In this document: piece after piece, positions 13,777 to 55,080 of the stretch | Layout of the letters: the number at the start of each line of letters is the position of its first letter | How positions within the stretch are numbered: position 1 is the stretch's first letter | Source of the DNA: Archilochus colubris | Lineage: Eukaryota; Chordata; Aves; Apodiformes; Trochilidae | DNA length: 64,000 bases | NCBI GenBank assembly: GCA_023079485.1 | Contig: CM041084.1 | Span: 98,436,467 to 98,500,466 of the forward strand | Direction of reading: 5' to 3' | Notes under the pieces: model-generated | What the model saw: only the letters and a program-made list of their open reading frames with translations | Told to the model about the DNA's origin: nothing | The model's database searches: none | Program-made: the position numbers and the translations under genes

Positions 13777-15740
13777 GATATGGCTATTTCCAAGTTTGAA
13801 GACTCTGCTGTAAGATTGAAGGCTAGTAAAAGTGGGTAAGTTAGTTAGCTGTCACATTCTCAGGTAGATCATGAACTGGAAAGCACAGATACACTTGAAG
13901 GATATCTAAGTATCAAATACTATTTCAAAAAGTGCCTTGAAGAAGTATGCAAGCACTGTATTCACCACTATAATTAATAATCTCAGAATACAGAAAAAAC
14001 TGTCCAGATAGAACATACGGAGGAAAGATACATAGAAAAGAAAAAAATCCAATTATCTTGAAGCTTTTTTATTTTATGTTTCAGGACAGTGGACTTCATT
14101 CTATATCCATTTTTTCCCCATTTGTGTTTCGATTTTGGACATAACACAAGACTGAACATTCTTTTCCTTGTCAAGGACTCTAAATAGGCATAATTTTTTC
14201 AAGGGGACGCACAGTACCATTACTAGGATAATTCAGTGTCTTCCTTTTTTGCCTGATCCTTTCACCACCATTTTCCAAAGCAGGACTGGGGGACACATTA
14301 CCAGTAAGCTAAGTTTTACATTCATTTATTTGAAATAATTTTTGCTGTTTTCTTGGTCTGATGCCTTATCTGAATGCATCAATAGATACAGTCTCTCTGG
14401 AATTTTCAGCAAACATAGCTCAGATCTGTATCATGGTGTGGTGGTGGGTGAAGGCACAAGGGGAATACACTGATGACAATTTAGGACAGTTTTCTTGGGG
14501 TTTTTTTTTGGTTTTTTTTTTGGTGTACAACCACAGCTTCCATTCCTAGCCATCCTAGCAAATGCCCAATTTTTGTTAAATTCAATCCACTGAGGTCATA
14601 TGAGTTCCTTCTCACACATATGTAATTTTCCCTTGCTTCCATGTGCTGGTGAATCACTACTGGGTCCTTCTCTTTCCCAAAAATAGTCTGGAAAGAGGGA
14701 AAAGAAAATATGACCCACAGGACTGAAATTCCCCATTGCAGCAGAAGCTTGTGGCAAGTCCTTTAGTGACACGGCTCCTTTCCTCTGCTTCAGCCTCAAC
14801 ACTGAGAGCACAGAGGACAGAAAAACAAAACACTGGGTGCTGCAACAGACTTGTGGCATTGTTGCTGACCATGATGCCAATTAGACAAATCATAACACAC
14901 TAGAATGTGTTCTCTGAAAACCCTAAATCACATAGCAACTCTAAGAGTATACATTTTCGCAATATCAGTTCACATGAAATGTGTATTTTTGGTCAAAGTC
15001 TAATTCAGAGCTTGCTTATTCCTGAAGATAGCTGAGTTTTGTAGCCCTGACGTGTTAATGGCTACTTCCTGATTAATCTGTTTTTCATTCATGAACCTTC
15101 TATCTATGATTTGCACCTTCACAATATACTACACATCTCTTTTCAGAACATTTCTGATCAGATTGAACGTGTTCAAGAATTACGACTGTGTCACACGCAG
15201 ACGTACACTTGATGTGTATGAAGGAGAGAATACCAATTCCATTACTGTCTTTAATGACATACTGTTTATCATTTTCCCCTCCCAGAAAATGCATTAGTAA
15301 TACAAGTATGTATTAGGTTAGGTAAAAATCTCAGAAGCTTTAATGGAATGTGAAAACACAGAGTGATTTCAGCACTGTCTGGGTCTCAGAATTTAAAACA
15401 CAAAGAACTTTCCTTAGAATTGCTCTGCGTTTCTTAAGTAGTTTCCACTGAAATGGTTTTATGCAAATCTATTTTGAGTGCAATAGAGATACTTAAAATT
15501 ATTTAATCTGATTTTTTTCATACTCATCTTTATTAGCTGTTAAATATTTGAGGCAGAATATTTAGTTGTATGATAATGGCAAACTACAATTAAAAAATCA
15601 ATCACTTTTGCTCTACACTATCAGCCTATACAAAGAATTAATGTTAATTGCTGCACTGAAAAATTTGCAGATCTTATTAATATATTTTCTGATTTGTTAT
15701 AGATGACTACACTCTTGGCTATTAATTCCATAAAAAGAAA
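13777..15740. other. Intronic stretch next to the GNAL exon, nothing recognised
   Basis: AT-rich sequence between a CR1 tail and the GNAL donor site. Overlapping minus-strand open frames at 14596-14893 and the plus/minus pair at 15091-15297 have no recognisable peptide. T-rich tracts occur at about 14500-14522. Confidence 0.55.
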
Positions 15741-15747
15741 TACTTAC

Positions 15748-15845
15748 TACTGTGCACAGTCAATCAGTTGATATTCGTTCGACCTCTCAAAGCATGCCTT
15801 TACACCTTCATCATCCCAGAGCTTTTTTGCATGTTCAAAGAATTC
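15748..15845 (-). CDS. GNAL: GNAL exon 5: G-protein alpha subunit, olfactory type (G-alpha-olf), internal exon
   Basis: The 98-bp exon encodes 32 residues running from EFFEHAKK through [16 protein letters not shown] to LIDCAQ, then two bases (TA) of a split Tyr codon. In minus-strand sense the acceptor is CTGATTTTCAG at the 15846 side and the donor is GTAAGTATT at the 15747 side, both close to consensus. The length and phase fit the homologous exon of the GNAS/GNAL family. [20 protein letters not shown] matches G-alpha-olf, whereas GNAS has the E/D, R/K and Y/F alternatives in this block. Relative to the human protein as I recall it, only D-to-E and V-to-A differ, near the exon start. The segment lies in the alpha-helical domain that covers the bound nucleotide in the G-alpha fold. 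G-alpha-olf couples olfactory and striatal receptors to adenylyl cyclase at the inner plasma membrane. No other exon of the gene is visible here. A processed pseudogene is excluded by the intact splice sites. Confidence 0.93.
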
Positions 15846-18800
15846 CTGAAAATCAGAAATGTAACACATAAGAGAACATTGCTCAATCTTTTCAATACCC
15901 AATCTGTATGTGTTGCTCCTTCCCCCAACCACCATACTTTATACTTTTGCAGAATGATAAATTACACCTTTAAAGAAGAAAAGCAAAAAACATTCATTGG
16001 CAAAATTGCAGTAAAATACACTGAACTCATGGCTGCTGACAGTCTCCAGTACATTTTATGTATTGAAGACTGTATTCAAAATTCATGTCAGTCCACAGAG
16101 AAAATTTATTGTAAGTACAAATACTACATAGAACCATGCTCACTTAATTTTTAACTCATGTTATGCTTCTGACAGGGGAAAGGTATAAACGTGATGCAAG
16201 AAGCTGCTCAGCTTATAAACATTAGCTTCCCAGAGAAAAAAAACAGTCTGTAGCTTTAAAAAAGATTGTGTAATTTTTCCTGAAAAACACAACTTTCCGT
16301 TGCTTAGTATTTTCTCATGCAACTCAGTAATTCGATTGCAAGGCTTCCAGAGTCTTTGCTCAACACCGCTTCCTCCACGCAGCCGCCTGGCACAACAGGC
16401 TTTTCCTAGCTGCTATCCCAGGCAACCCAATCCAAAAATATGAGCCAGCAAACTTATTTCAGAATTTTTTGAAAGAGAAATTAAAGCTGTCCTTGGTGAC
16501 AGTGAAACCACAGCTCAGTTGTATCAAATACAAACACACAGAGTGGTAGGTTGGACCCTGCCTGCCAGATTCTCCAGCGCCTGCTGTAGAGCTTCATACA
16601 CTACAGTTCCTAAAGCTGACTCCAGGTCATGTTATATCATTACTGGTAAGTCAAACTGTAACTGGATTTTTTCACCTAGAGCTTTCTAAAATCAAAAGCA
16701 GAATGGTTCAACAAATTAATATTTCCTTTATTACAGGACCAAGTCTTTCCTCCCTCAAATAAAATTGTTCAAGTAGTAAGCCAATCTAAATACAGAAATC
16801 TGTAAACTCTTCATACCTCAACGAGGTTACTAAATCATCAGAGTCCTTTGGTCAGTCATAAATTTCCAAAACCGAACAAATGGCTTTTCCACAGTTCAAT
16901 CTGGCTCTGTGTAAATTGGGTGTAATACAACTATTCACTTTATAATCCCATTGAAACACGTAAATATCTGAATTCTACGACTTTCTGAAATTATTTGCTA
17001 GTCCCTCTCCACACCTTATTGAGACTAAAAACTTCTCTCAAAAGACAAAGCTCATAGCAAAAGATCTGGGCAGCACAGTGAGTTCACATTTACTCTGTTT
17101 GGGTTTCCAAACCTCTCATGCCACCCCAATGAGGTGCCCCAAAAGGTGACACCCCACTACTCCACTCCCCAGCAGCTGCCTCTGGCCTGCTGGTGATGTT
17201 TTCAGGGAGTGGCAAAACACAAAACAAAATTTCCAGAACCTACTCTTACTGAAAATTGTTTATTTAAGCTTTGAACATGGCTACAGAAATCCTGAAGAAC
17301 CCAAGAAATGTTTTTTTCTTTCAACTAAGTTGTGTAGAGAGAGAAAAAAATCCATTATTTAAGAGGTTTTCAAACTTTAGAGAAAAGGAACTGTTAAAGC
17401 AGGTGCAAAAAACCTTCACAGACAGTCTTGGAAGAGGAAGCAATACCAGAGATTGGCAGATGCTTATACTGCCCTTGGAATTTATTTCTTCACCTTGGTG
17501 AAGACATGTTTATTTTATCTTTGTTATTTTAACGACTTATGTAATGATTCTTTAAAACACTGCTGATCCACCTCTTGAAGTTAGGCTATGGCTATTATAA
17601 ACTCTGTGTTCCTACAGCAGAAGGAAAGCAAAAATAAGCTCAAGAGAGGACAAGATATCAAACTAAGCAAGTGGAAGGAAAAAGCAGAGACAGACAACAG
17701 GACTACAGGTAAAAAAGAGATAAATGAAAAAGTCAGATTGATTAGTATCAGAAAACATGGAACATTCCCTAAACTTGAAGCCTATGCTTGACTGATATTT
17801 AGGGCATCAGATGAATGCATCTCACTTGCTTTCACCTTTGGCCAAAGAAAGGCACTGCCTTCTCAGTTCAAGGAGTGAGCTGTGGATAAACGTCAGGGTG
17901 AAAAAAAAAGAGGTGAAAGGACCCAGCTCTCCCACCCCCTTTGATGTCTCTGCATACAGGGACTCACTGCTGCAGGTGTGGTGGATCAGCACCATGTGAC
18001 AATCCTTCCCTCTTCACCACCAGGGACTGGGAATTCCCACATGCCCAGAAAGCCACCTCTGAGGGGAACCCACATCTGAAAAAAGGCTCCATTCAGCCCC
18101 ACACAAGCTATGGTAAGGGGATGGGAAGAGGAGAAGGATGCCAGCGTGAAAGCTTCCTTTTCTGTGGGATGGGATGGACAGAGAGACAGCTGCAGATGTA
18201 AATAATTAAGTTAATAAAAAAATAAATAAAATTGCATAGCTACAGCAGCTTCTAACTTCACTTCTGCTTTTATATCCTCTGTGTGAGCTTTATTTACTCT
18301 TCAAAATATCTCCTGGAAAAGAGGCAACCTTTTCAGCTCAGCTTCTGAGACCCTACAAATAAGTTATAAATACAGGGTTTCCATATTATACGTTTGAAAT
18401 ATTTCTACCTGACCATTATATCTCAAAGCAGTCTATTTAAAATGACTTCCAGACTTCTAGTCCAAAGCAAATCCTATAAAACAGAGCAAATATACTTCCC
18501 TCATTAAAATGTACTGATCTACTGCAGAGGAGTACACTTGCCTGCAAATTGCCTCCCACACACCTACCCGATCCTTCTTTCCCAGGTGACTAAAGCCTTC
18601 CAGAAAAATCTTACTTCATTTCAAGACACCAAACACCATGATCCAACTTTTTTACACTTGTTTTTAACCCCTTTCTCATCTACTGTAAGTTCTTCAGTAT
18701 TTTTTCTCCTCCAGTGGCTGAAGGGTCTCATTGCACACAGTCAAGCACACGGGAGGATCCTGCTCACAAGTGCCAAACAAGTCTTGATCCCAACCTACTT

Positions 18801-20966: not shown

Positions 20967-20972
20967 GCAAAC
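20967..20972. repeat. Left target-site duplication of the palindromic element
   Basis: GCAAAC directly precedes the terminal TGTAGTGTAA and is repeated at 21181-21186. Confidence 0.75.
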
Positions 20973-21180
20973 TGTAGTGTAATGAGGCAACCAGGTGCCA
21001 CTAATTGCCAGGGTGTGAGCATGAGCTTGTGTCAAGCCCACCTGTGCCCAGTTAGGGTGGGCCCCCACTGCGCATGAGCAGGACCAGGGGGCCGATCCTA
21101 ATTGGGCACGGATGGGCTTGACACAAGCTCATGCTCACTCCCTGGCAATTAGTGGCACCTGGTTGCCTCGTTACACTACA
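20973..21180. mobile_element. 208-bp palindromic (foldback, MITE-like) element with 6-7 bp target-site duplication
   Basis: The left arm, 20973-21066, and the reverse complement of the right arm, 21087-21180, match at 87 of 94 positions by hand count, around a 20-nt loop (21067-21086). The ends are TGTAGTGTAA and its exact complement TTACACTACA. GCAAAC lies directly outside both ends (20967-20972 and 21181-21186); shifting the left boundary by one base gives a 7-bp repeat, GCAAACT. Terminal inverted repeats plus flanking direct repeats show this to be a transposition product. The whole element is arm plus loop, with no coding capacity, so it would be non-autonomous. The TG...CA ends and a 6-bp duplication would also fit an LTR, but LTRs are not palindromic along their full length. 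The GC and CpG content is higher than in the surrounding intron. I do not recognise the family. Confidence 0.8.
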
Positions 21181-21186
21181 GCAAAC
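21181..21186. repeat. Right target-site duplication of the palindromic element
   Basis: GCAAAC directly follows the terminal TTACACTACA and matches 20967-20972; a 7-bp reading (GCAAACT, 21181-21187) is also possible. Confidence 0.75.
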
Positions 21187-24100
21187 TACTTTCAGGGTTT
21201 TCTACATGTGACATGTTTGAATTCACAGTCCTAAGAATATAATTTTAGAAATCCTTTTCTGTGTACTCCAGGTCAAAACGAAACCAGATACAGCAGCCTG
21301 CAGCCCAAGCCACTTGAACAACAGCAATCACCAGGATGCTGTGCTTGCTACAGGGAAGGATGGGTAGCAAGATGCTCTGGGAGAGGTGGTGAGGAGGAAG
21401 GAGTTGAACCTAGCATTTTCTCCACTTCCCCAAGTGGTGTGAGGAAGCCTTTTCCCACATGGTGCCTGGGAGATGGCTAAAGAGAAAGCATCTGAGACAA
21501 AGGGAAGCTCAGCTGAGCCCCCCTCTCATGCTCCAGAAAGCTCTGTGGCTGCTGGGGGTATCAGGGGAGCTGCTCCTGCTCTGGCTGCAACGCAAATAAG
21601 CCTATCAGTATTCTGCTGGGTTTTGTAGCATAAGCCATGCAAAGTAATGAAAGTATGGTAATTTTAAAAAGTTTGTATTTCAGCCAAGTAAAACCTGGAA
21701 TTTAAGAGGATAAAGCAAAAGATGCTTTTGTAGATCCAGGACTCTCTTGCAAGTCTCTACATTATCTATTCACTGCAAACAGTTCTCAGACATTTGGATT
21801 AAGATCAGAGCAATATAAATTTAAAAGTACTGCTCCTGTATCTATGGTAAAAGAGTTCTGTTTTTCTCTTGGTATCAGTTTTCTCATTAGTCCAAGACTT
21901 GTCCATTTGGAATTGGGAGACAAACTTTCCCAACACTTCTGTCAAGACTGGGTTTTGCTTTAAATTTAACTTTTTTTCCTGCAATGTAACTGCTAAGAAT
22001 GAAGGGGAAAAAAATAACAGAGAAAATGTAATGACTAATATAAACAACACAGGGCTACAAATACTGTCAAAAGAAGAAAACCAGTTTTCCCTGAAGAGGC
22101 TACCTCTACATCCCAGTACATGAGGCATTTCTAGTCTGCCATGTTGCTTACCCTATATAAGCATCTCTGCATGTCCAGAGAGAATGGTACTGATACACAC
22201 AGTAGTTTCTTAACGTGTCAAAGCCTTTAAATCACGTATGATTATATTTCTGTAAGATACACCTGGCAGCTCAACATAATCCAACAGCTAAGACTTTTTA
22301 GAATGTAGCAAAGAATAAATCACCTGCTTTTTGTTTTAAGAATGTATAGTAATACTATCAATAATGTATAATGAAAGTGCTAATGCAAACTTGCTGAGTG
22401 AATAAACTTGAGGAAATAATACTCACGCCTCAGGCTGAATGAAGAGAATTAACTAAAAAAGGCACTTCTGTACTACACAACAAATCAGGCAGCAGAAAGA
22501 TGAATTTAAGTCAAGCAAACAACCTTTTACTGCAATTTTTTTTGTACACTATTTATATTCCATTGCCTGGGCTTTTCTCTGCAATGCAAGACTGAGGGGC
22601 TTATAAGGAAAAAAAATCTAAAAGCCATCTGCATGATGCTGTATATATAGAGATGTTTCCTAGTCTCAACTTTAACCTTGAATCTTAACCCAGTGAATGG
22701 ACAGTGAACGATAATTTCCCCCACTGTCTCTGATTACTACTGGCTTGCTTGTGCTAAATGTAGCAACTCATTTTCTATTAAAAATATTCATCACTCCCAA
22801 ACTTGCACTGAGTTCAGCTGTAAGCTGTAGGAACAAAAATGGATTTAATGCTGAAATTATGGGGTAAAGTACTAGGTAAGACACCCAAGAGAGAAGCAAG
22901 CCTGCTCAGTTACCTCTTCCACAAACAAGCACAGTCTCTTGATAATCAGCCTCTTGTTTATGAGACAAAAGTGTCCCCTATGGCTCAGTCAGCTCCACTT
23001 AATCCTTTATGAAATGTGCTGCCTAACAAGGGAGCTGTTTTGCTGTAGGTATACAAAATGCAGCTGCTCAAACTCCTAATGCCCACAACAAAGACAGACA
23101 AAACCAGTGACAATTTAAAAACAAAAGCAGACTACATGACTCGATTTTTTCCACTGGCAATTAACACCCAAGAAATACAACGAGAAATACTGAACCCACG
23201 TAGGAGTGGTCAACTAGCATGCAAGGACCATGCTTAGCAGTAGGATTCAGATATTTCTAAGGCACTAGCACTTATGGTGAATTAATTATAGAGAAACGTT
23301 TAGAAAAAATAGAACCTCCACCCCCTGCAAGGTATATTCTGTTGTAATCTGTAGGTGTGCAATAATCAATGCAATTACTTTGCTAGTTAGTGAGTCACTG
23401 TGATAGGCAAAGCAGCAGTTTGGCCTCTAACCCTCCTCTGAGACCTAACTTTGGATCTATCAAAGAGAGTTGCAGAATAATATATCCAGATCTATTTTGT
23501 GCCCCTGTTCATTGGACTTTTTTTGCCTTTTTGAGGCTGGAGACAACAGCTTGAAAGCGTGATCGGTCTGCACTAAGGATAACCTCAGTTCATTAGAACT
23601 GAATATTGGGAGGATGGTAAATACCACTTTCACAGAACACACGTGTGTTGGTGCATCTTAGGTTCCAAGAAAACAAAATCAGATTATTATGTCCTAGGAG
23701 AATCTTATCCAGCTTGGAGAAACAAACAGGATTTATAAAGGTGTAAAGAGCATAATTTTTGCAGATTCACGTGCTACTGAAGCTACTGAACATAGAAAAA
23801 GGTGTCAAATGTGGAGGTCATTGGCAATGTTCAAAAACCAGGAGTGCACCCAGCACAGGACATCCTACAGCTCTTTCTTGAACTATTTTTGTGACTTGAC
23901 TAGATGTTAGGAACATGTTCCCTCTTCCATCTTACTACACAGAAATCAACAAGTTCACTATAGTAGAACTCAGAACACATACACACATCTGAGAAACATA
24001 TTAATACTGTTTCCAAACTCGTACATGTCAAACAGTCAAAAAAGGTCTGAAAGTTCTATAAATTATACTAAAATTAAAGCATGATTTTTTGCTTTTGAAG

Positions 24101-38300: not shown

Positions 38301-41300
38301 TCAGAGTTAAGTCTATACCTACTGCCCAAAAACAGAGAATTTCTACAAATCCAGAGAGCTGGTGGTCCTGACAGTCCTCTGGGAAAAGAGACATCTTGCT
38401 TTGTCCTCTGACTCTGAACCAGGCAGAGGAGAAATTTGAATTTCTGAGATGAGCACTCTGACTGTCTGCCTTGGAAGCTCTTCCTGGCTATGCATTTAAG
38501 TCAGTTTTGTTAGAAAACGCTTTTCCAAGTTTTCTTGGATTCTTAAAAACTTTCAGTTTCAATGAGTCAGCATTTCCAGATGAAATGTTGCTGCACTGAA
38601 AAATTAGTGAGCAGCTGTATTTTTAATAGCTGTCTATATTATTTAACATTTTTGTAATTCTGCCTGAACGGTTAGTTGTATGTTTCTTGACTGTTAAAAC
38701 ATCCCCTTCTCCCTCCCAAATGCACTTAGGATTTAAATCAGTAAGGTATTCAAAAGAACTTCAGAATTTCATTGATTCAAACAAATGGTCATTTCAAGAA
38801 TATGTATTCTTTGCATGCTAATTGTTTTGTGCCATTATAGATATGGGGTGTATCAGAACCCAAATATGAACCATGCAATTTCCTCTTATCAAAATGGCTG
38901 CGAAATAGAACTTCAGAGAAAATAACCCACTCCAGTAAACAATCAAGGTATATTTAGAATTCATGCTGTAGCATTTAAATAAGGATAACCTATAAAGGAC
39001 TTAAGTTCTTAGAAAGCTTCATTAAAAATACAACATCTTTTTGTTGTTGTAAAAGCAAGATCCCCAAAAGAACTACTTGCACTTTTCTCCCTTTACAGTC
39101 TAAAAGATTTATTCTGGATATACTCAGCAGTATTTTCTGACCATTCTTGAAGGCTGGTGAAAATATTTGAGATGAAAACCTGAATGTCAATTTTTGAGGA
39201 CTTAAGAATGCTATTTATGACCTAACAGAAGACAGCTTGAAACAGTATCAAGGCATACATCCCTCTTCTGCTATCAAGATCCAGATGAAAACTCCCATTT
39301 GCCTTGGCAAGAGGAGCAACACACTGTCACTACAGCTGGCAGGAAAGAATGGACACCTCCAAACCTGAAAAAAACACCACAACCCTCTCTACACTTGCTG
39401 CTCATGAAACCTCCCACTTGTGCCAGGACTAACTGAAGCAGAAAAAAATGCAGTCATTTCAAAACACCACTTCAGAATTAGTGCTGACTGGCACACAGAT
39501 ACAGCATTACACTACAGTCCCATCTACACTGAATACATAATAATTACCTGAAACTTGGCAGGTGCTCTAAACGCACAACATATTAAGCCACTAATGAAAT
39601 ACTTTTTTTATGAGCATGCCATTGCTAAGATGGATGTGGATAAGCACAATCCTTGCAAACTCATGACTCAATATTATCCATGCATTCTACTGTTACCATA
39701 GGAAACTGATTCCTTCAGCAGCAGCAATCTTTTTAAACTACATTAAATCAGGTTATAGTAGCTAAAATAAATGTAGCTTGTATCTACAAAATATTTGTCT
39801 TTACATAATTTACAACTATCTTTAATTAGAACAGATTATTCGAAGATGTGGAATAAAGCATTACAAAATTTAAATCTGTCTACCACACTTTTATGAAAAA
39901 AAAATAAATCCATAAACACAAATATTTCCTATTATAGTCCAGCTAATAGAAATGGAAAAAAATCTAATACTTTATCATGGCACATGGAAAGCATTGTCTT
40001 GTACTTTCCCATGACTGCCCTCTCAAGACAGCACAATACTTCTTCAACAGTTGCATTTTTGAAAGTGAGTGTAGGTACACAGAGCCACATTTTCTTAAAA
40101 AGGTCTCCTTAATACTAAAATAACCCACTGCAGTACAATCATGTTCAGGTTTCAAGTGTCCTTCTTCAACTGCAGTGTGACATACTGCATTTTATGAAGT
40201 ATTCTTGGAGCATCCATTGTCTGCAAAGCACAAGTGAGACACCTAAGTCTAAGCAATGTCTGATTCTAAAACAAACACTCAGTACCCACACAGAAGACAC
40301 CAGCTTACATGTCATATTAAGCAAACAAGAAGTACCATGGAAAAGCCCAGTAGTGTTTTGTTGTTGTTGTTTTTTGTTTGTTTTTTTTTTTTTAATCTTA
40401 GCATCACAAAATACTGTTTTAGATCCATCCACCACCTACTTGAAATTAAAGGACTTGATTTATTTCAGAAAGACTCGAGTACTTTTAAGAACTGATTCCC
40501 ATCCAATTACACATCTGTTCTGATACAGTAGAAAAACCCTACATGTATGGTATTGCTCACACTGACCCAACTGCAGTCTACAGACTGAAGCCAATAGTTA
40601 CTGTAATTGCTAACACTATAGTATTTTCTTTTGGTACCCAATGTATATTCCCTCTATCAAGATGAATACATCTCCTATTTTTCAAATAATTTCATAAATC
40701 TCACAGTACTCTGGATTTCTAAAGAGAAGGCATTTTTAAAGAAGCAACATGATTTTCTTAAGTCTCCTACATCTCAGGGAAGTCAAACTTGCAAAAGTTT
40801 ACACTCAGATCTTAATACTTTCCTCCACAAACTCTCACAGCATAATTCTCCTGAGGCTTGGCTTCTGATATAATTTCAGTTGATTACACTATACCTCTGC
40901 TTAGGATCTGCCATTCCTGTTCTAAGAGAATGAGGAGAGTTTCCATTTTAATGAGGAAGAATGCATTTTTTCCCTCTACTTAATTAAACTGAAATTACAA
41001 TTAAAAAAAAAAAAAAGGAGAAAATGCAATATTTGAACTGTTGCTGGAATACTGAATGATCAGCAGATAATACTGTGCCTGTGAAGACCACAGAAGTAAA
41101 CTTTTCCACCATCAAAATGAAGGTCAGAGATTTACTCTTTTTTTACACCATGAAACAACTGATGTAACCTATCTCAGGTGTACACAAACAACTGAAATTC
41201 TCAGCTGTTCACTTTCAAAGCCTCAGGGAAATGTTTCTGTCCAGGAGAAATGAAAGCCCAAGTGAAAACTGTGTGCCACTTCTGGCTTGGTTTGTAACAG

Positions 41301-44839: not shown

Positions 44840-45308
44840 ATCATAGAATCATAGAATCAGCTGGGTTGGAAGGGACCTCAGAAATCATCAAGTCCAACCC
44901 TTGATCCACTACTGCTGCAGTTACCAGACCATGGCACTGAGTGCCACATCCAGTCTCTTTTTAAATATCTCCAGGGATGGAGAATCCACTACTTCCCTGG
45001 GCAGCCCATTCCAATGCTTGATCACTCTCTCCGTAAAGAAATTCTTTCTAATATCTAACCTAAACTTCCCCTGGCACAGCTTAAGACCATGCCCTCTTGT
45101 CTTGTTGAAAGTCGTCTGGGAAAAGAGATCAACCCCCCCCTGGCTACACCCTCCTTTCAGGGAGTTGTAGAGAGCGATGAGGTCTCCCCTGAGCCTCCTC
45201 TTCTCCAGGCTGAACAACCCCAGCTCTCTCAGCCTCTCCTCATAGGATCTGTGCTTGAGTCCCTTCACCAGCCTGGTTGCCCTCCTTTGGACCTGCTCCA
45301 GGACCTCC
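44840..45308 (-). mobile_element. CR1 LINE, 5'-truncated (sense -), relatively young
   Basis: On the plus strand it opens with ATCATAGAATCATAGAATC, the intact reverse complement of the CR1 terminal octamer repeat. It continues through GGGTTGGAAGGGACCTCA and the ORF2 C-terminal coding region in antisense. Similarity to the second copy at 50551-51099 stops after GGACCTC at about 45307, which marks the 5' truncation point. The two copies are roughly 90% alike over the shared ~468 bp by hand comparison, so they belong to the same or closely related subfamily. Orientation is the same as GNAL. Confidence 0.95.
44921..45268 (-). pseudogene. CR1 ORF2 C-terminal fragment (non-LTR retrotransposon polyprotein)
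   Basis: A 115-codon open frame encodes the conserved region downstream of the reverse transcriptase in CR1 ORF2. It begins [20 protein letters not shown], continues [19 protein letters not shown] and later [20 protein letters not shown], and stops shortly after ALSAMVW at the natural ORF2 end. The endonuclease and reverse transcriptase catalytic domains are absent because of 5' truncation, so the fragment cannot mobilise anything. No promoter or initiation codon belongs to it; the apparent start is a GTG valine codon within ORF2. The frame is still open because the insertion is fairly recent, not because a host gene exists. Confidence 0.9.
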
Positions 45309-50550: not shown

Positions 50551-51099
50551 AGAATCATAGAAACATAGAATTGGCTGGGTTGGAAAGGACCTCAGAGATC
50601 ATCAAGTCCAACCCTTGATCCATTACTGCTGCAGTTACCAGCCCATGGCACTGAGTGCCACATCCAGTCTCTTTTGAAATATCTCCAGGGATGGAGAATC
50701 CACTACTTCCCTGGGCAGCCCATTCCAATGCCTGATCACCCTCTCAGTAAAGAAATTCTTTCTAATATCCAACCTAAACCTCCCCCGGCACAACTTGAGA
50801 CCATGCCCTCTTGTCTTGCTGAGAGTTGCCTGGGAAAAGAGACCAACGTCCACCTGGCTACACCCTCCTTTCAGGGAGTTGTAGAGAGCAATGAGGTCTC
50901 CTCTGAGCCTCCTCTTCTCCAGGCTGAACAGCCCCAGCTCCCTCAGCCTCTCCTCATAGGATCTGTGTTTGAGTCCCTTCACCAGCCTGGTTGCCCTCCT
51001 TTGGACCCACTCCAGGACCTCAATATCCTTCCTGAACTGAGAGGCCCAGAACTGGACACAGTACTCGAGATGTGGCCTCACCAGCGCTGAGTACAGGGC
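50551..51099 (-). mobile_element. CR1 LINE, 5'-truncated (sense -), relatively young
   Basis: It starts (plus strand) with AGAATCATAGAAACATAGAA, the reverse complement of CR1 terminal octamers. It then runs through GGGTTGGAAAGGACCTCAGA, the antisense ORF2 3' coding region, and on to CAGTACTCGAGATGTGGCCTC and CACCAGCGCTGAGTACAGGG, where CR1 similarity ends. It is about 80 bp longer at the 5' side than its relative at 44840-45308. There is no clear target-site duplication. Confidence 0.95.
50635..51081 (-). pseudogene. CR1 ORF2 C-terminal fragment (non-LTR retrotransposon polyprotein)
   Basis: A 148-codon frame reads [20 protein letters not shown], then [20 protein letters not shown] and onward to the natural ORF2 terminus shortly after ALSAMGW. 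This is the region following the reverse transcriptase palm in CR1-type LINEs. The first codon is GTG within ORF2, not a true start, and the frame stays open a few codons further upstream (ALYSAL, to about 51109). It differs from the copy at 44921-45268 at about 11 of 115 shared residues. The endonuclease and catalytic RT motifs are missing, so it is inactive. It should not be annotated as a host gene. Confidence 0.92.
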
Positions 51100-54368: not shown

Positions 54369-55080
54369 ATGCTGGGAGATGTAGTGGTTGGGGGCTGTCT
54401 TGGGCTTAGTGACCATGAAATGGTGAAGTTCTCAATCTGAGCTAATCTTAGGAGGGAATTTAGCAAAACCTCCACCATGGACTTCCAGAGGGCAGACTTT
54501 GGCCTGTTCAGGACACTGGCTGAGAGAGTGCCTTGGGAGGTTGTCCTGAAGGACAAAGAGGTACAGGAAGGTTGGACATTGTTCAAGAAGGAAATCTTAA
54601 AAGTGCAGGAGCAAGTTCAGAGAAGGGCAACCAAGCTAGTGAAGAGGCTGGAGAAAAAGCCCTATGGAGAAGAGGAGGCTGAGAGGAGACCATAACACTC
54701 CCTGCAGCTACCTGAAAGGAGGTTGTAGGGAGGTGGGTGCTGGCATCTTTTCTCAAGTGAATAATGATAGAAGCAGAGGAAATGGACCTGAAGTTGCACT
54801 AGGGGAGGTTTAGACTAGATATCAGGAAGAATTTCTTTACTGAGAGAGTAGTTAGGCATTGGAATGGGCTGAGCATGGGGGTGCTGGGATCATCCCTGGA
54901 AGTATTTAAAACCCATGTAGATGAGGCACTTGAGGACATGCTTTAGTGGGTGATATAGATATCAATATATATGTATTTTATCTGAGGGGTCTGGTGGTGG
55001 TGGTGGGTGTTTACAGTTGGACACAGTGCAGTGATCTTAGTGGCCTTTTCCAACTGTGACCGTGTTGTGATTCTGTGATA
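54369..55080 (+). mobile_element. CR1 LINE with large internal deletion joining endonuclease end to ORF2 C-terminus (sense +)
   Basis: The 5' part reads GDVVVGGCLGLSDHEMVKFS (from about 54378). It includes the SDH motif carrying the conserved His of the APE-type endonuclease, followed after a gap by DFQRADFGLF and VPWEVVLKDKEVQEGWTLFK. At about 54610-54618 the sequence passes directly into VQRRATKLVKRLEKKPYGEE, which normally lies beyond the reverse transcriptase. Essentially the whole RT coding region is deleted. The 3' part continues through CAGGAAGAATTTCTTTACTG near 54823 to GTTGTGATTCTGTGAT at 55080. A stop interrupts the endonuclease part directly after the KFSI codons. Confidence 0.93.
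54477..54695 (+). pseudogene. Chimeric CR1 ORF2 remnant (linker fused to C-terminal segment)
   Basis: A 72-codon open frame. Residues 1-46 correspond to the ORF2 linker between endonuclease and reverse transcriptase (ADFGLF, VPWEVVL, EGWTLFKKEI). Residues 47-60 correspond to the post-RT region (VQRRATKLVK). The join preserves the frame by chance, then the frame is lost within about 12 residues. It is a by-product of the internal deletion, not a gene. Confidence 0.85.

What the first reader, a model, noticed from the sequence alone, without database searches (positions are those of the whole stretch)
20967..21187. A near-perfect 208-bp palindromic insertion with a 6-7 bp target-site duplication
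Seen directly: two 94-nt arms match at 87 positions around a 20-nt loop, with 10-bp identical termini TGTAGTGTAA/TTACACTACA, flanked by GCAAAC(T) on both sides. Known: foldback/MITE elements are non-autonomous DNA transposons with long inverted repeats, and a 6-7 bp duplication is unusual among vertebrate superfamilies (hAT gives 8, Tc1/mariner TA, Harbinger 3). Inference: this may be a member of a little-described family in birds, or a head-to-head rearrangement of an LTR with TG...CA ends. It is richer in GC and CpG than its intronic surroundings. The transcript of such an element would form a long hairpin inside GNAL pre-mRNA and could be a Dicer, Drosha or ADAR substrate.
Basis: partly seen in the sequence, partly recalled or inferred. 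Interest (0 to 1): 0.78.

Follow-up and report, generated by a model that had tools for sequence, protein, structure and literature searches.

The report
Fold-back palindromes made from an LTR
A 208-base mirror-image insertion in a bird-like gene region is one of many similar copies in that genome, and the copies look like repeatedly made fold-back by-products of a virus-like mobile element that were then inserted as if they were the element itself.

Summary
Window 20973-21180 is a near-perfect palindrome (94-nt arms, 7 mismatches, 20-nt loop) flanked by a 6-bp duplication, GCAAAC.

It is repeated in its own genome: all 40 scored places (of 1191 first-look candidates) match nearly the whole element. 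Of 29 copies read, 24 have an exact 6-bp duplication and 5 one with a single mismatch.

Its left 121-124 bases, loop included, match the start of a separate 324-bp TG...CA element, also with 6-bp duplications and a CCAATAAAAGG box. This looks like a solo LTR. The palindrome turns back at a 7-bp stem that most of those LTRs contain.

Turn-back junctions differ between copies, and three copies carry other LTR-subfamily bases in both arms. I read this as repeated fold-back priming on LTR DNA followed by integration, not one amplified MITE; some arm comparisons point the other way. A related 506-bp palindrome has a tRNA-like loop and more alike arms.

Not shown: the parent's coding region. Whether it is a retrovirus or another TG...CA transposon stays open.

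The parts
20967..20972 (.). left copy of the 6-bp target-site duplication GCAAAC
   Evidence: 24 of 29 copies read have an exact 6-bp duplication
20973..21066 (+). left arm (94 nt), matching the first 94 nt of the 324-bp LTR-like element (TGTAGTGTAA...GGCCCCC)
   Evidence: 96.8% identity to C element L078 over element bases 1-124
21060..21066 (+). 5' half of the 7-bp stem GGCCCCC at which the palindrome turns back; the stem is exact in 6 of 11 C loci scanned
21067..21086 (+). 20-nt loop ACTGCGCATGAGCAGGACCA, same as the LTR text in LTR orientation
21087..21093 (+). 3' half of the stem, GGGGGCC
21094..21096 (+). junction tail GAT (AAT in sister copies), read as 3 further LTR bases copied beyond the stem before the switch to the inverted arm; two of the 7 arm mismatches lie here
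21087..21180 (-). right (inverted) arm, ends in TTACACTACA
21181..21186 (.). right copy of the target-site duplication GCAAAC
15672..15860 (-). G-alpha (GNAL-like) exon; the insertion lies about 5.1 kb upstream of it in the gene's direction (intron inferred)

Best explanation
The insertion is a by-product of an LTR-type mobile element. A single DNA strand that began at the element's TG end (its U3 start) stopped shortly after a 7-bp inverted repeat in U3 (GGCCCCC-20 nt-GGGGGCC), just before the CCAAT/AATAAAA box. Its 3' end folded back on that stem and was extended back to its own 5' end. The resulting palindrome has the same U3 terminus (TGTAG...CTACA) at both ends. The element's integration enzyme accepted it and inserted it with the usual 6-bp duplication. 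This happened several times or more, with different tail lengths and from more than one LTR subfamily, so the 208-bp copies are not all descendants of one master. The window copy is an old, probably inert one. Shown: the family, the 6-bp duplications, homology to the 324-bp element, the turn-back at the shared stem, heterogeneous junctions, and subfamily bases in both arms of three copies. Inferred: fold-back priming (plus-strand strong-stop DNA during reverse transcription would fit best), and integration by a retrovirus-type integrase.
For: Own-genome copies: 40 of 40 scored places, of 1191 candidates. TSDs at 6 bp: A 24 exact and 5 with 1 mismatch of 29; C 8 exact, 4 with 1 mismatch and 1 offset of 13; B 17 exact of 20. 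C is about 324 bp, TGTAG...CTACA, with CCAATAAAAGG near base 120. Junction tails follow the LTR text for different lengths: CAC 5, AAC-type 8, AAT-type 9 (window included), AATAAAC 1, AATRAAAGGC 2, AATAAAAGGTAC 1, three others; 29 in all. L029 and L041 carry one C-subfamily signature (columns 8 and 11) in both arms, L088 another (columns 12 and 28). On the arm tree A is not one clade (7 changes, 5 forced by starred branches). Own-arm pairing is closer than re-paired arms in 2000 of 2000 shuffles, for A (22 of 29 copies) and for B (18 of 20). The stem forms with probability 0.44-0.77 in one C strand (L078) cut at six lengths, DNA parameters.
Against: No pol, primer-binding site or full provirus was seen; the search meant to find one did not complete. 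All 13 C elements with both ends have their own duplication or a near one, so none is visibly part of a provirus. C, B and D share only the first 130-170 bases, whereas LTRs usually keep R-U5 better (recalled). The tree puts the left arms of L029 and L041 with their C subfamily but not the right arms, and the C copies of that subfamily scanned (L074, L077) lack the exact stem. L032, L085, L086, L090 and L091 carry subfamily bases in one arm only. The same A products could come from central deletion in longer head-to-head palindromes, since the stem halves are direct repeats there. Copies sharing a junction class may be copies of copies; only 7 of 44 A arms have their own partner as nearest relative, and right arms of different copies differ by 4.9%, hardly more than the two arms of one copy (4.8%). 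Copies were ranked by similarity to the window copy, so junction frequencies are biased.
Confidence: 0.58

Rival explanations
1. A DNA transposon family, not an LTR element. The 324-bp C element is a non-autonomous transposon with TG...CA ends and 6-bp duplications (as in the GingerRoot/IS3EU lineage), and the palindromes are fold-back derivatives moved by its transposase.
For: 6-bp TSD and TG...CA fit GingerRoot as described in PMC10045372 (passages: 6-bp TSDs, termini mostly TA..TA, occasionally TG..CA). No internal retroviral region was found. C has a 5-bp terminal inverted repeat.
Against: C has only 5 bp of inverted ends and a TATA/AATAAA-like box inside, as an LTR would; IS3EU ends are TA..TA. 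No transposase was sought.
Confidence: 0.22
2. One palindromic master (a foldback MITE) arose once and was amplified in trans; the junction differences are later small deletions or insertions at the palindrome centre.
For: Two junction types hold 17 of 29 copies. A arms are mostly nearest to other copies' arms, not to their own partner (7 of 44). The R-arm base T at column 87 recurs in 16 of 22 copies. The tree does not put the right arms of L029 and L041 with the C subfamily of their left arms.
Against: Tails such as AATAAAAGG and AATAAAAGGT repeat the LTR text that a short palindrome would already have lost. Signature bases of other C subfamilies occur in both arms of L029, L041 and L088. 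B arms differ by 1.5% within copies but 3.3% between copies, with symmetric variants.
Confidence: 0.15
3. The hairpin is kept for a function in the host transcript (microRNA-like or edited RNA).
For: Very stable hairpin on either strand. Weak covariance-model similarity to mir-2300, 36.7 bits.
Against: Below the family cut-off of 90 bits; no gathering-level Rfam match in the window. Dispersed copies with neutral-looking arm mismatches: 60 transitions and 21 transversions in the outer 80 bases of 26 of 29 copies.
Confidence: 0.03

Closest known systems
Solo LTRs of avian endogenous retroviruses with 6-bp duplications (ERVK/alpharetrovirus type; recalled)
   Same: TG...CA ends, constant 6-bp TSD, promoter-like box; the 324-bp relatives C look like this
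   Different: The window element lacks the right two thirds of that LTR and carries an inverted second U3 end instead; no provirus seen
Foldback elements / MITEs (e.g. galluhop mariner MITEs in birds, PMC5556988, passages seen)
   Same: short, non-coding, inverted ends, fixed-length TSD, multicopy
   Different: 6-bp TSD and TG...CA instead of the TA duplication of Tc1/mariner (recalled); several separate junctions rather than one master
GingerRoot / IS3EU DNA transposons (PMC10045372, passages seen)
   Same: 6-bp TSD; GingerRoot termini are occasionally TG..CA
   Different: IS3EU termini are TA..TA; no transposase sought or seen here
Dada transposons (PMC3706591, passages seen)
   Same: 6-7-bp TSD
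   Different: Dada-U6 and Dada-U1 have no terminal inverted repeats, and Dada inserts into small-RNA genes; insertion sites here are unrelated 6-mers

Membership tests
Solo LTR / LTR retroelement (for the 324-bp relative C) | TG...CA ends | tested here: met
   11 of 13 begin TG (L074 TA, L079 GG); all 13 end CA, but the right end was found by a pattern that asks for it. A 14th copy, L010/L022, is truncated and was left out
Solo LTR / LTR retroelement (for the 324-bp relative C) | constant short target-site duplication | tested here: met
   8 exact, 4 one-mismatch, 1 offset of 13 at 6 bp
Solo LTR / LTR retroelement (for the 324-bp relative C) | same sequence flanks an internal region with primer-binding site and gag-pol | not tested
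   pattern search sent and never answered
Solo LTR (for the window element itself) | complete U3-R-U5 with distinct left and right ends | tested here: not met
   both ends are the same U3 end inverted; no AATAAA, ATTAAA or TATA word inside
Foldback element / MITE | long terminal inverted repeats, no coding capacity | tested here: met
   94-nt arms; the one stop-to-stop ORF of 75 aa or more that enters the element (97 aa) runs in from the flank
Foldback element / MITE | amplified from one or few masters by a DNA transposase in trans | tested here: inconclusive
   several junction types and both-arm signatures argue for repeated origin; arm nearest-neighbour counts and parts of the tree do not; no transposase sought
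hAT MITE | 8-bp TSD | tested here: not met
   6 bp in 24 of 29 exactly
Tc1/mariner MITE | TA duplication | tested here: not met
   6-bp duplications of varied sequence
IS3EU | TA..TA termini, 6-bp TSD | tested here: not met
   TSD met, termini TG..CA
GingerRoot | 6-bp TSD, TA..TA or occasionally TG..CA termini, integrase-like transposase | tested here: inconclusive
   TSD and termini compatible; transposase not tested
Dada | no terminal inverted repeats; insertion in small-RNA genes | tested here: not met
mir-2300 microRNA family | score at Rfam gathering cut-off | tested here: not met
   36.7 bits against 90

The most novel reading that the evidence does not exclude
Plus-strand strong-stop DNA of an endogenous retrovirus repeatedly snapped back on a stem in its own U3 (and, in the 506-bp relatives, on the acceptor-like stem of a tRNA-like sequence). 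It thereby made palindromes with two U3 ends that the integrase inserted in large numbers. This would be a second, fold-back output of reverse transcription that looks like a MITE family but has many origins.
Probability: 0.38. Interest if true: 0.78.

Novelty: new variant of a known kind. Interest (0 to 1): 0.6.

Why it matters
If right, palindromic repeats with fixed duplications cannot be filed as DNA transposons by structure alone. Some bird 'MITEs' would be failed reverse-transcription products. They would leave a genomic record of where reverse transcription stopped and folded back, and of integration with two U3 ends. The near-identical arms also give an insertion clock within a single copy. 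Each copy puts a long hairpin into any transcript it lands in.

Tried and rejected
Chance palindrome: rejected. Single-copy rearrangement: rejected. A 7-bp or 8-bp duplication as the rule: rejected. Dada and IS3EU membership: rejected on features. mir-2300 and other Rfam similarity: below cut-off, best explained by any long hairpin; in B copies MIR6201 likewise, 29-32 bits against 69. tRNA gene: none called by ARAGORN in the window or in L007, L009 and L010, and no Rfam tRNA match in the four B loci scanned; the 'tRNA-like' label for the B loop rests on recalled A-box/B-box words and an acceptor-like stem. A fold test of the B stem like the one made for C failed on a text mismatch and was not repeated. 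Copies in viral and bacterial/archaeal collections: 0 hits in five pattern scans and no candidate in one protein search; these collections hold little bird DNA, so this says little. The C13 trio of B copies 7.35 kb apart shares outer flanks, so I read it as a tandem duplication of one insertion, not a provirus. Ten literature searches listed no title or abstract start that describes this element; I saw listings only (each capped), apart from passages of three papers, and did not open the 44 papers holding one of the short terminal words. Dfam and Repbase could not be searched, so it may already be catalogued there.

Full report
WHAT IS THERE. Window 20973-21180 is a 208-bp palindrome: 94-nt arms with 7 mismatches and a 20-nt loop, with GCAAAC directly outside both ends. 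No other inverted repeat in the window with a spacer of up to 40 nt reached the listing score; the other long inverted pairs are distant repeats kilobases apart, 70-79% alike, several of them CR1-like. Sixty random windows with the same dinucleotide statistics gave at best a 16-bp stem. The flank match alone has a chance probability of 0.06% at exact ends, or 0.4% allowing one base of slack at each end. The element is richer in GC and CpG than the window.

SURROUNDINGS. The window lies at C2:98436467-98500466 of a 1.10-Gb genome in 182 contigs. CR1-type repeat tails, recognised from memory, point to a bird. One GNAL-like exon lies on the minus strand at about 15672-15860, so the insertion is upstream of that exon and probably intronic. 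The strand that would be transcribed folds at -180.4 kcal/mol and the other at -196.4. No other GNAL exon was recognised.

IT IS A FAMILY. A sample of twenty 10-kb stretches (and one of 2 kb) of contig C1 contained three related elements. The genome search then gave 40 scored places, of 1191 first-look candidates, matching nearly the whole 208 bp. I read 28 of the 39 others. With the window copy, 24 of 29 have an exact 6-bp duplication and 5 have one mismatch; the duplicated 6-mers are unrelated. I call these copies A.

THE PARENT. A second class, C, is 314-324 bp long in the 13 elements read: TGTAGTGTAA...CTTGCTACA, with only 5 bp of inverted ends, a CCAATAAAAGG box near base 120, and its own 6-bp duplication (8 exact, 4 with one mismatch, 1 offset; 40 of 1782 candidates scored). 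A 14th copy, L010/L022, is truncated on the right and shows no clear duplication. These are the features of a solo LTR. Bases 1-124 of the window element are 96.8% identical to C copy L078. A third class, D (L007:8681-8999, duplication CATCAT), shares only the first part. No provirus was seen; the search for one did not complete.

THE TURN-BACK POINT. C contains a 7-bp inverted repeat, GGCCCCC-20 nt-GGGGGCC, just before the CCAAT box. It is exact in 6 of the 11 single-element C loci scanned, imperfect in 2 and not found in 3. In A the palindrome turns back here. The loop is LTR sequence; then come bases that continue the LTR text (CCAATAAAAGGT...) for different lengths, and then the inverted arm. 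The junctions read CAC (5 copies), AAC-type (8), AAT-type including the window's GAT (9), AATAAAC (1), AATRAAAGGC (2), AATAAAAGGTAC (1), AATAAAAGG followed by a different resumption point (1), and two others (L087, L092), 29 in all. A single short palindrome could not regain LTR text it had lost, so several origins are needed unless a longer palindrome was the source.

SUBFAMILY SIGNATURES. Three A copies carry, in both arms, signature bases of other C subfamilies: L029 and L041 (columns 8 and 11) share those of L074 and L077, and L088 (columns 12 and 28) those of L082 and L083. L032, L085, L086, L090 and L091 carry such bases in one arm only; some of these could be CpG decay. The arm tree needs 7 changes between A and C, with 5 forced by well-supported branches; it has few columns, its bootstrap had not settled, and five right arms with long or changed inner ends group together, probably for that reason alone. 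It places both arms of L088 among C copies, but of L029 and L041 only the left arms. Also against repeated origin: the C copies L074 and L077 lack the exact stem; only 7 of 44 A arms have their own partner nearest; and the two arms of one copy differ by 4.8%, left arms of different copies by 6.0%, right arms by 4.9% and left against right by 6.2% (22 of 29 copies; 0 of 2000 re-pairings as low as the true pairing).

THE 506-BP RELATIVES. Class B has 222-nt arms and a 62-nt loop. Of 40 scored places (1224 candidates), 24 are followed at once by an inverted copy, in two of them a short one. Of 20 palindromes read, 17 have exact 6-bp duplications; L053 shares 5 bp, L056 7 bp and L054 is unclear. 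The loop with its closing stem is tRNA-like by recalled promoter-box words, but no program calls it a tRNA. Arms differ by 1.5% within copies and 3.3% between (18 of 20 copies; 0 of 2000 re-pairings as low; own partner nearest for 24 of 36 arms), and three copies have identical arms. Shorter B derivatives (L009, L052, L068, L071) run to the end of the tRNA-like stem and then jump to different points of the inverted arm, each with an exact 6-bp duplication. Four other non-palindromic B copies (L067, L069, L070, L072) showed no duplication, and L049-L051 look like one locus duplicated in tandem with a one-mismatch duplication in L049 and L050.

HOW IT MOST LIKELY WORKS. A DNA strand starting at the LTR's TG end stops shortly after a stem, folds back, and is extended to its own start. 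The product has two U3 ends and is integrated with the usual 6-bp duplication. Plus-strand strong-stop DNA has the right start and direction (established knowledge of reverse transcription, recalled). A DNA-parameter fold of one C strand gives the stem a probability of 0.44-0.77, depending on where the strand is cut. Central deletion within a longer head-to-head palindrome would give similar products, because the stem halves are direct repeats there. No such C palindrome of about 648 bp appeared among the 40 scored C places, but the possibility is not excluded.

AGE. The window copy's arms differ at 5 of the outer 80 positions; 26 of 29 copies average 3.9% (three with 17 or more mismatches without gaps were left out). 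With a neutral rate near 2 per billion bases per year (recalled), the window copy is very roughly 10-20 million years old, and the identical-arm B copies are much younger.

COMPARISON. hAT, Tc1/mariner, Dada and IS3EU each fail a tested feature. GingerRoot fits on duplication length and, sometimes, termini (PMC10045372, passages) and stays a rival. No title or abstract start listed by the ten paper searches describes this element; repeat databases were not available.

Noticed in passing
G000 C13:1237309, 1244696 and 1252043 (L049-L051): Three copies of a class-B element in a row with a spacing of about 7.35 kb; outer flanks are shared, so it looks like a local tandem duplication.
   Followed up: partly
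L043:171-676 and 19 similar copies: 506-bp near-perfect palindromes with a tRNA-like cloverleaf candidate as loop; three of 18 measured copies have identical 222-nt arms, so some may be recent or polymorphic insertions.
   Followed up: partly
L009:5615-5926, L052:256-628, L068, L071: Shortened B elements that all keep the left part up to the tRNA-like stem end (GAGAGCC) and then jump to different points of the inverted arm, each with an exact 6-bp duplication.
   Followed up: partly
window 44840-45139 and 50554-50853 (also 2174-2259 and 54665-54887 inverted): CR1-like repeat copies, two of them 92% alike over 300 nt.
   Followed up: no
window 39489-39516 (minus): An isolated TGTAGTGTAATG match without the rest of the element; at chance level (E 1.8).
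   Followed up: yes
L081:221-1145: Two C elements inserted about 600 bp apart in the same orientation, each with its own duplication (one exact, one with a mismatch); not an LTR pair of one provirus.
   Followed up: partly
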